42,752 nt of DNA from Bacteroidota bacterium (lineage in GTDB: Bacteria > Bacteroidota > Bacteroidia > Bacteroidales > B39-G9): positions 1 to 42,752 of the forward strand of contig JADFUR010000030.1 of the NCBI GenBank assembly GCA_015222055.1. The letters run 5' to 3'. Below are positions 1,070-35,137 of this stretch, one piece after another; position 1 is the first letter of the stretch; each line of letters begins with the position of its first letter. Under the pieces are notes generated by a model. It was not told the origin of the DNA and ran no database searches. It saw only the letters and a program-made list of their open reading frames with translations. The position numbers and the translations under genes are program-made.

Positions 1070-1107
1070 GTACATTAAAAAAATCTCTATGCAAATCTGA
1101 ATAACTT

Positions 1108-1156
1108 GTGCCCAATAATATTCATGGGTTAATTATAATAAATAAACCTGATGTAC
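1108..1156 (+). pseudogene. Relic of a REP-associated tyrosine transposase (Y1_Tnp), copy 1
   Basis: Translation from GTG 1108 reads VPNNIHGLIIINKPD. It corresponds to the signature segment MPNHIHGI(I/V) around the HUH metal-binding motif of RAYT/Y1 transposases, with the first His replaced by Asn. Only about 16 codons survive. Copies 2 and 3 (18652 and 34888) share the nucleotide sequence CCCAAT.AT.TTCATGG-like start and AATAAATAAA. Unlike them, this copy has no 28-bp palindrome after it. Confidence 0.6.
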
Positions 1157-1180
1157 GCAATAAACTCAAGTTTTCTTTTC

Positions 1181-18429: not shown

Positions 18430-18463
18430 AAATAAAAAACTCACCCAAAATTTATAAATTTAC
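18430..18463 (+). repeat. Promoter-like repeat, copy e (truncated)
   Basis: ACTCACCCAAAATTTA followed by TAAATTTAC (18455-18463) matches the right-hand part of copy c at 22190-22241 exactly over about 28 bases. No TTTG/TTTT box is present, and no gene follows closely, so this looks like a dead copy. Confidence 0.5.
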
Positions 18464-18651
18464 ACGATGCTTAAAAATTAAAAAAATAAAAAAAGACAAA
18501 ACACCGAAGGAGTGATATAAAAACAAATTTTAGAATGTATGAATAGCCTTATTAATATAATAATACCAACCCTTTGGGGTTAAAAAAACGAATTAAATAT
18601 TTTTGCTAAAATAATATCAGCCCTTCGGGCTTTAAAATAATAAAATGACTT

Positions 18652-18852
18652 GTGCCCAATTATATACATGGAATAATTACAATAAATAAACCTGATGAAA
18701 GCAATAAGGTAGAGACGCATAATTATGCGTCTCTACAAACCGCAAAACCACAAAATAAATTAGAATCTTTTAAAAACAAATGCCCATTAAAAATTATACA
18801 AAAAAATTGTTTTCAAACTCATTCAATGCTAATAATTTATATAATGCCTTAA
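18652..18852 (+). pseudogene. Relic of a REP-associated tyrosine transposase, copy 2
   Basis: Starting with GTG or ATG-like MPNYIHGIITINKPDE, it preserves the neighbourhood of the HUH motif of Y1/RAYT transposases with the first His changed to Tyr. At 18709 the frame enters the 28-bp palindrome, which is translated as VETHNYASL, followed by QTAKPQNKLESFKN. The remaining 30 codons no longer resemble the family, and the catalytic Tyr region is absent. The N-terminal half of the protein is also missing. It is a dead fragment, although a 66-codon frame is still open. Confidence 0.65.
18709..18736. repeat. 28-bp perfect palindrome, REP-like, copy 1
   Basis: GTAGAGACGCATAA followed by its exact reverse complement. 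A second perfect copy lies at 34951-34978 and an imperfect one at 22134-22161. It can fold into a 14-bp stem with almost no loop, or a slightly shorter stem with a 4-base loop. Two of the three copies are in frame within transposase relics. Confidence 0.9.
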
Positions 18853-22133: not shown

Positions 22134-22161
22134 GTAGAGAAGCATAATCATGCGTCTCTAC
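22134..22161. repeat. 28-bp palindrome, REP-like, copy 2 (imperfect)
   Basis: GTAGAGAAGCATAA then TCATGCGTCTCTAC: it differs at two positions from the perfect copies. Sequence downstream (AAACCACAAAACGAATTTA) matches the stretch after copy 1, but the transposase start upstream is absent here. Confidence 0.8.
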
Positions 22162-22189: not shown

Positions 22190-22241
22190 AAAATTATACC
22201 AATAATTTATTTTTTAACTCACCCAAAATTTATAAATTTAC
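22190..22241 (+). promoter_or_regulatory. Repeat-borne promoter, copy c (before the ATP-cone nuclease)
   Basis: TTTT (22210-22213) followed by TTAACTCACCC and, after 19 bases in all, TAAATTTAC (22233-22241). The start codon is 80 bases downstream. It shares CAATAATTTATTT and AACTCACCCAAAA with copies b and e. Confidence 0.45.
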
Positions 22242-34744: not shown

Positions 34745-34887
34745 AAGAAACATAATTAATCTGTCAATTTGAATATCCCCACTCCAACTCAACTAGGTCT
34801 CAAACCACGTCTTTTTATTAAAAAAAAACAATATCAAAAAAAATCCCACAACATTTTCCATTTGTGAAATTCAACAAATTTGTTGTT

Positions 34888-34998
34888 ATGCCCAATTATA
34901 TTAATGGGATAATTATAATAAATAAATATTATAATGGTCGCAATAATATTGTAGAGACGCATAATTATGCGTCTCTACGAGGCACAAAACAAATTTAG
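34888..34998 (+). pseudogene. Relic of a REP-associated tyrosine transposase, copy 3
   Basis: ATG 34888 reads MPNYINGIIIINKYYNGRNN, a degraded version of the HUH-motif segment in which both His positions are lost. It then enters the 28-bp palindrome in the same reading phase as copy 2 (VETHNYASL) and stops at 34998. Only 36 codons remain. Confidence 0.6.
34951..34978. repeat. 28-bp perfect palindrome, REP-like, copy 3
   Basis: Identical to the copy at 18709-18736, with GTAGAGACGCATAA joined to its reverse complement. It is embedded in the transposase relic. Confidence 0.9.
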
Positions 34999-35137
34999 AT
35001 TCCAATCCAAAAATCTGGCGTCAATAATATGCGGTTTTAAATTTGCGGTAACAATTAATGCCCGTTAAATAAATACCTGTTTCGTATGGCAATCACATTT
35101 TCACGACCACACAATCCGCAATGATTTCCCCTTTTCA

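What the first reader, a model, noticed from the sequence alone, without database searches (positions are those of the whole stretch)
18652..18852. Palindrome sits in frame inside a dead REP-associated transposase, repeated at 34888
In two relics the 28-bp palindrome follows MPNYI(H/N)GI by the same reading phase (codon 20 and codon 22) and is translated VETHNYASL. The relic at 1108 has the same gene sequence up to GCAATAA but lacks the palindrome at that point, as if it were an empty site. This suggests the REP-like palindrome has inserted into its own transposase-type gene without breaking the frame.
Basis: partly seen in the sequence, partly recalled or inferred. Interest (0 to 1): 0.55.

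Follow-up and report, generated by a model that had tools for sequence, protein, structure and literature searches.

The report
Transposase genes carrying their own REP
The window holds dead copies of a bacterial transposase gene that carries, in frame, the kind of small DNA hairpin such enzymes recognise; this arrangement was already published, but comparison with live relatives suggests that the hairpin is kept as DNA and follows the enzyme rather than the genome.

Summary
Observation confirmed. A perfect 28-bp palindrome lies in frame (VETHNYASL) in two dead RAYT/TnpAREP relics, at 18709-18736 and 34951-34978. The 1108 relic is a truncation, not a demonstrated empty site. In-frame REPs inside this RAYT subclass were published in 2018 (subclass 2.4, PMC6006769), so the window adds decayed members of a known kind.

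What I add rests on 92 RAYT genes of the same order and 66 from named records. Strong slot palindromes: 58 of 92 and 43 of 66, none in shuffles. Where a GT[AG]G foot was found it lies in phase 0 or 1 in 93 of 93; one 28-mer occurs in both phases as different peptides. The slot REP follows the enzyme tree and differs in 13 of 13 paralogue pairs within a genome. Its codons are kept better than the rest of the gene overall, though clearly so in only 10 of 25 pairs. In 12 of 19 genomes tested it is the only exact copy.

Best reading: the slot holds the enzyme's cognate REP, kept as DNA. Passive insertion with replacement remains a serious rival.

The parts
18649..18774 (+). RAYT relic 1: HuH region (mutated to NYIH), slot and the sequence just after it
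   Evidence: sequence; tblastn of intact RAYTs, best E 5e-07, matches within 18649-18759
18709..18736 (.). perfect 28-bp double-foot REP, read VETHNYASL in relic 1
   Evidence: exact, 0 expected
34840..35137 (+). RAYT relic 2: matches residues 74-122 of the stop-to-stop L088 ORF in frame 1 and 129-179 in frame 2: a frameshift just after the REP, one TAA in the second part, both ends of the gene missing; HuH mutated to NYIN
   Evidence: E 1e-26, 63 and 65% identity
34951..34978 (.). perfect 28-bp double-foot REP, read VETHNYASL in relic 2
   Evidence: exact
1105..1161 (+). half relic: RAYT sequence up to the REP position, then unrelated sequence; no REP
   Evidence: tblastn best E 0.001
22134..22161 (.). 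third REP copy (2 mismatches), followed by about 12 bases like the gene sequence after the REP in relic 1; no gene sequence before it

Best explanation
These are dead copies of a REP-associated tyrosine transposase (RAYT/TnpAREP, of the kind called subclass 2.4) that carries a REP hairpin inside its own coding sequence, in a loop predicted to be disordered between the HuH motif and the next helix. Inferred: the slot REP is the enzyme's cognate recognition hairpin, kept because the enzyme or the element needs it as single-stranded DNA or as RNA, either as a founder copy that travels with the gene or as a site for self-control. The loop tolerates it, and the TAG in a GTAG foot closes the third phase. 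In the window's genome the copies of this lineage that I found are broken, while its REP persists.
For: Slot palindromes of score 11 or more: 58 of 92 genes, 0 of 1840 shuffles; 43 of 66 named genes, 0 of 1320 shuffles. Foot phases 0/1/2: 28/27/0 of 55 footed among 71 palindromes and 25/13/0 of 38 footed among 49. The same 28-mer in both phases: AAAATTTT type 6 and 2, AATGCATT type 1 and 6, CGATTAATCG type 1 and 2, so the peptide is not what is kept. Inner core changes 57 times on the tree of 158 genes, lowest of 300 shuffles 87. Nearest relative has the same core in 53 of 112, all pairs 288 of 6216. 13 of 13 within-genome pairs have different 28-mers. REP codons identical 153 of 212, expected 87.6 with sd 6.8, control windows 91.8. 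Slot copy the only exact copy in 12 of 19 genomes whose slot fits the pattern, of 35 searched. Own-type copies outside the gene: 58 of 89 within 200 bp of its ends, about 4 expected. Loop pLDDT under 50; best PDB match 4er8, the enzyme bound to a REP hairpin.
Against: 22 of 92 genes have no slot palindrome of score 8 or more and 17 of 66 none of score 9 or more, so it is not essential. L111 (G140) has an empty slot yet three REPs of or near the window's class on each side, so a REP class is not tied to one enzyme clade. In 15 of 25 nearest pairs more than 5% of control windows are as well kept as the REP, and in 3 (L140/L153, L123/L101, L097/L114) the REP is kept worse than the control mean. 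54 of 112 was the ceiling of agreement seen: about half of nearest relatives have a different core. In 5 nearest-neighbour rows the same core lies in another phase, which fits re-insertion or paired small indels better than plain retention. 19 of 114 slots hold two or more REP-like units. Allowing 2 mismatches, only 3 of the 12 sole-copy genomes still have the slot copy alone. No function was tested; most assemblies are drafts.
Confidence: 0.45

Rival explanations
1. Passive insertion: REPs spread by the enzyme insert in many places; the disordered loop is a part of the gene that tolerates them, and old copies are now and then replaced by new ones of the same type. No function in the slot. This is close to the published view (PMC6006769).
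For: The loop is predicted disordered. 19 of 114 slots hold several REP-like units. Same core in different phases between relatives (5 rows). The window's REP core also sits in frame in an open PfkB-family kinase gene (L275). In 15 of 25 pairs codon conservation does not stand out. Passages of PMC6006769.
Against: In 12 of 19 genomes no other exact copy was found to re-insert from, in 3 of those 12 none within 2 mismatches. Paralogues in one genome carry different REPs in 13 of 13 pairs. Among genes from the 12 sole-copy genomes, the 25 same-phase pairs that share the inner core have 197 of 215 REP codons identical, control windows 77.8; these pairs are not independent and were chosen for the shared core.
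Confidence: 0.37
2. Hairpin self-correction or conversion: the palindrome is kept perfect by template switching between its arms, or by conversion from copies at the gene ends, without selection.
For: In 25 pairs of relatives, stem changes hit both arms 34 times and one arm 20 times. Copies of the own type often lie next to the gene.
Against: Arm-to-arm copying keeps a palindrome but not one sequence, yet the identical 28-mer is found in genes with 60-70% core identity. Some of these genes have no second exact copy. The palindromes were selected for being palindromes, so paired changes are partly built in.
Confidence: 0.12
3. The REP-coded peptide is an ordinary functional protein segment.
For: Peptides such as VETxxxASL recur in many slots.
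Against: One DNA sequence is read in two phases as unrelated peptides; some genes lack it; the loop is predicted disordered.
Confidence: 0.03

Closest known systems
TnpAREP subclass 2.4 (PMC6006769; section 13 read whole, other passages)
   Same: Abundant in Bacteroidetes and Cyanobacteria; NH[IFV]H and WQ motifs; REPs beside the gene; double-foot GT[AG]G...C[TC]AC REPs; [quoted passage not shown]
   Different: The window's copies are dead. The passages I read treat the insertion as probably of little impact; 'codon' and 'synonymous' do not occur in the main text. Its supplements, with the figure on insertions, were not readable to me.
GTAG REPs inside genes, and REPtrons (PMC3733652; abstract and passages)
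   Same: GTAG-tagged palindromes, some inside open reading frames; RAYT genes flanked by REPs.
   Different: The intragenic cases in the passages read are other genes (repair, replication, tRNA-related), not the transposase itself.
Rickettsia palindromic elements (as described in passages of PMC3733652)
   Same: Palindromic repeats in frame inside protein genes.
   Different: Not described there as lying in a REP transposase gene.
E. coli TnpAREP and its REP (4er8; PMC8266576, abstract and passages)
   Same: Fold of the enzyme; enzymes and REPs said to have co-evolved.
   Different: The E. coli REP is an imperfect palindrome with a bulge; a REP inside the gene is not mentioned in the passages read.

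Membership tests
RAYT/TnpAREP | Y1/HuH transposase core related to TnpAREP | tested here: met
   Relic 2 matches the intact relative L088 at E 1e-26. Of the relatives in A1, 12 of 12 match NCBIfam REP_Tyr_transpos at best E 2e-17, but the score shown, 58.6 bits for the first, is under the curated 80; Pfam Y1_Tnp matches 3 of 12. Best PDB match of the L088 model is 4er8. The relic fragments alone match no NCBIfam model.
RAYT/TnpAREP | Intact HuH and catalytic Tyr in the window's own copies | tested here: not met
   NYIH and NYIN instead of NHIH; frameshift and a stop in relic 2, whose match ends before the Y motif. They are pseudogenes.
[quoted passage not shown]
   Window: REP after the HuH region, in frame. 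Relatives.
TnpAREP subclass 2.4 | Double-foot REP, GT[AG]G ... C[TC]AC | tested here: met
   GTAGAGAC...GTCTCTAC.
TnpAREP subclass 2.4 | Cognate REPs beside the gene | tested here: inconclusive
   Relatives: own core outside the ORF in the fetched locus in 23 of 65 genes, foreign cores 54 of 3118 pairs; 17 of 49 and 35 of 1820. A clear excess, but most genes show none within the stretch fetched.
TnpAREP subclass 2.4 | Place in the published subclass tree | not tested
   The published tree and profiles were not at hand; the assignment rests on motifs and the in-frame REP.

The most novel reading that the evidence does not exclude
In this RAYT subclass the gene carries its own cognate substrate, under selection as DNA or RNA, inside its coding sequence. 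The slot REP then names the enzyme's specificity, so that pairs of enzyme and hairpin can be read straight from gene sequences, and a transferred gene always brings a founder REP with it.
Probability: 0.37. Interest if true: 0.7.

Novelty: new member of a known kind. Interest (0 to 1): 0.42.

Why it matters
How a RAYT recognises its own REP is an open question that papers treat one enzyme at a time. If the slot REP is the enzyme's cognate, about a hundred enzyme-hairpin pairs (114 genes with a slot REP here) become readable from sequence and testable in vitro. It would also be a case of one DNA stretch kept both as a protein loop and as a hairpin.

Tried and rejected
Rejected: chance; an ordinary conserved peptide (two phases); a clean empty site at 1108 (what follows the break is not RAYT).

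Less useful: Pfam Y1_Tnp gave 11 matches in the own genome; I read one of them, an IS200-like protein (L001), and did not classify the rest. The family held only 6 genomes. Paper searches listed many unrelated papers. In six searches I found no paper that reports codon conservation or enzyme-tracking of REPs inside RAYT genes; the library lacks most subscription papers and I could read no supplements.

Limits: counts depend on my palindrome score (match +1, mismatch -2, loop 0.5 a base). One search listed 123 matches; I fetched 100 regions, leaving out the own genome's three and most of the weakest. ORFs without a definable slot or repeated were dropped: 115 ORFs to 92 genes and 82 to 66. Feet were not found for 16 of 71 and 11 of 49 palindromes. 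Two gene pairs are shared by the unnamed and named sets; the tree count includes them, the neighbour counts do not. Shuffles kept dinucleotides, base composition only.

Full report
1. Observation. The 28-mer GTAGAGACGCATAATTATGCGTCTCTAC is exact at 18709-18736 and 34951-34978, with a 2-mismatch copy at 22134-22161; none is expected by chance. From GTG 18652 and ATG 34888 it starts at codons 20 and 22 and reads VETHNYASL. The intact relative L088 aligns to relic 2 at 34840-34980 (frame 1) and 34985-35137 (frame 2), 63 and 65% identical, with a frameshift and one stop, and to relic 1 at 18649-18759. The first HuH histidine is lost in both.

2. The own genome (G000, a draft of 118 contigs). Further relics with a REP lie at C12:75226-75336 (exact 28-mer) and C48:27680-27773 (one mismatch). 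REPs without a recognisable gene lie at C97:16854 (exact), C40:1428 and C48:27420 (both imperfect). A search with a RAYT query found one open RAYT-like gene, at C56 (L050, 184 aa). It holds a different palindrome at the same place (ACGGGTTTGAAACCCGT, read TGLKPV; my score is under 8, so it is not counted below) and two REPs of matching type downstream. The 1108 relic stops one base short of the REP position and goes on with other sequence; at 22134 only the REP and a short stretch after it look like the gene. Two half copies broken at the REP edge are suggestive but too few to interpret.

3. Known phenomenon. [quoted passage not shown] The window is an instance of this.

4. Survey. Of 393 genomes of the order searched, 88 had a hit at E 1e-8 or less, 123 matches in all; 100 regions were fetched. 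With L050 and L057, 102 of 102 loci held RAYT ORFs, 115 in all; 92 distinct genes had a definable slot from HuH to W[QLE]. Slots with a palindrome of score 11 or more: 58 of 92; shuffles 0 of 1840; N-terminal parts 8, C-terminal parts 1 of 92. The named set: 43 of 66, shuffles 0 of 1320, N-terminal parts 6, C-terminal 0. Slot REPs occur there beyond Bacteroidota by record title: cyanobacteria (L237, L256), Methylomonas, a Methylococcales symbiont and Crenothrix (L189, L233, L246), KSB1 (L229), Chlorobiota (L207); several of these are metagenome bins.

5. Phase. A GT[AG]G foot was found for 55 of 71 palindromes: phase 0 28, phase 1 27, phase 2 0; in the named set 38 of 49: 25, 13, 0. With GTAG, phase 2 gives a TAG stop, so its absence is expected. 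The informative point is that one and the same 28-mer occurs in both open phases, which gives different peptides (examples).

6. The slot REP follows the enzyme. Inner-core changes on the tree: 32, lowest of 200 shuffles 44 (65 genes); 57, lowest of 300 shuffles 87 (114 genes with a REP). Phase also follows the tree (12 changes, lowest shuffle 16). Without near-identical genes, the nearest relative has the same inner core in 53 of 112 (48 in the same phase), against 288 of 6216 of all pairs; by set, 38 of 65 and 15 of 47. Within genomes, 12 of 13 pairs of genes differ in the inner core; the thirteenth (L123/L101) differs by two paired stem changes.

7. Conservation as DNA. In 25 disjoint nearest pairs in the same phase, 153 of 212 REP codons are identical; 87.6 (sd 6.8) are expected from the rest of the gene and 91.8 from sliding control windows. 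Both genes of a pair were required to have a palindrome. The effect is uneven: in 10 of 25 pairs at most 5% of control windows reach the REP, in 15 more do, and in 3 the REP is below the control mean. Among genes from the 12 sole-copy genomes, 25 same-phase pairs sharing the inner core (not independent) have 197 of 215 codons identical, control 77.8.

8. Copy number. Pattern GAGACGCAANNNNTTGCGTCTC: 26 of 35 genomes have a match; in 19 of the 35 a slot copy fits it, and in 12 of these 19 it is the only exact match. With 2 mismatches allowed, 3 of the 12 (G203, G223, G344) still have the slot copy alone. For a second REP class, 2 of 11 genomes (G265, G318) have the slot copy alone within 2 mismatches, while G034 has 29 matches. 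Own-type copies in the fetched flanks cluster at gene ends: 58 of 89 within 200 bp (about 4 expected). Slot copies have no arm mismatch in 80 of 114, copies outside in 45 of 89; slots were chosen for palindromicity, so this comparison is biased.

9. Structure. AlphaFold2 on A1 gives L088 residues 94-118, which include the REP-coded part, pLDDT under 50, between strand 82-90 and helix 128-145. The best PDB match is 4er8, the REP-associated tyrosine transposase bound to a REP hairpin (E 2.4e-06).

10. The window's own REP elsewhere. The exact core occurs in 7 of 393 genomes, the own one included. At its 12 places outside G000, tblastn with the 92 RAYT proteins found no match in the fetched loci. 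In L275 it lies in frame in an open PfkB-family kinase gene. RAYT L111 of G140 has an empty slot and three REPs of or near this class on each side. So this REP class moves, and is not bound to the slot.

11. Mechanism. [quoted passage not shown] A slot REP would let the enzyme act on its own gene or message. I favour retention of a cognate hairpin (0.45) over passive insertion with replacement (0.37). Nothing here shows binding or function.

Noticed in passing
L275:922-1923 (G027:C49): The window's REP core lies in frame (VETHNYASL) in an open PfkB-family kinase gene that scores 132.9 bits in Pfam.
   Followed up: partly
L111 (G140:C50): RAYT with an empty slot flanked on each side by three REPs of or near the window's class, about 50 bp apart.
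   Followed up: partly
L097 (G285:C7): A RAYT gene with an internal duplication that repeats the HuH motif and the slot REP (two identical REPs 222 bp apart), frame open.
   Followed up: no
L162, L171, L183: Segments that read like REP peptides (CRDGVHTVST, VETFHETSL, VETVRAPSL) also lie in the N-terminal half, after the HYFGEI or HFFGEI strand: perhaps a second tolerated site (8 of 92 N-terminal parts have a palindrome of score 11 or more).
   Followed up: no
L246, L266, L104, L183, L214: Slots with several decayed or tandem REP-like units in one phase; 19 of 114 slots have two or more.
   Followed up: partly
window 18438-18462 and 22216-22240: A 25-bp repeat AACTCACCCAAAATTTATAAATTTA, exact at both places, near relic 1 and near the third REP copy; none expected by chance.
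   Followed up: no
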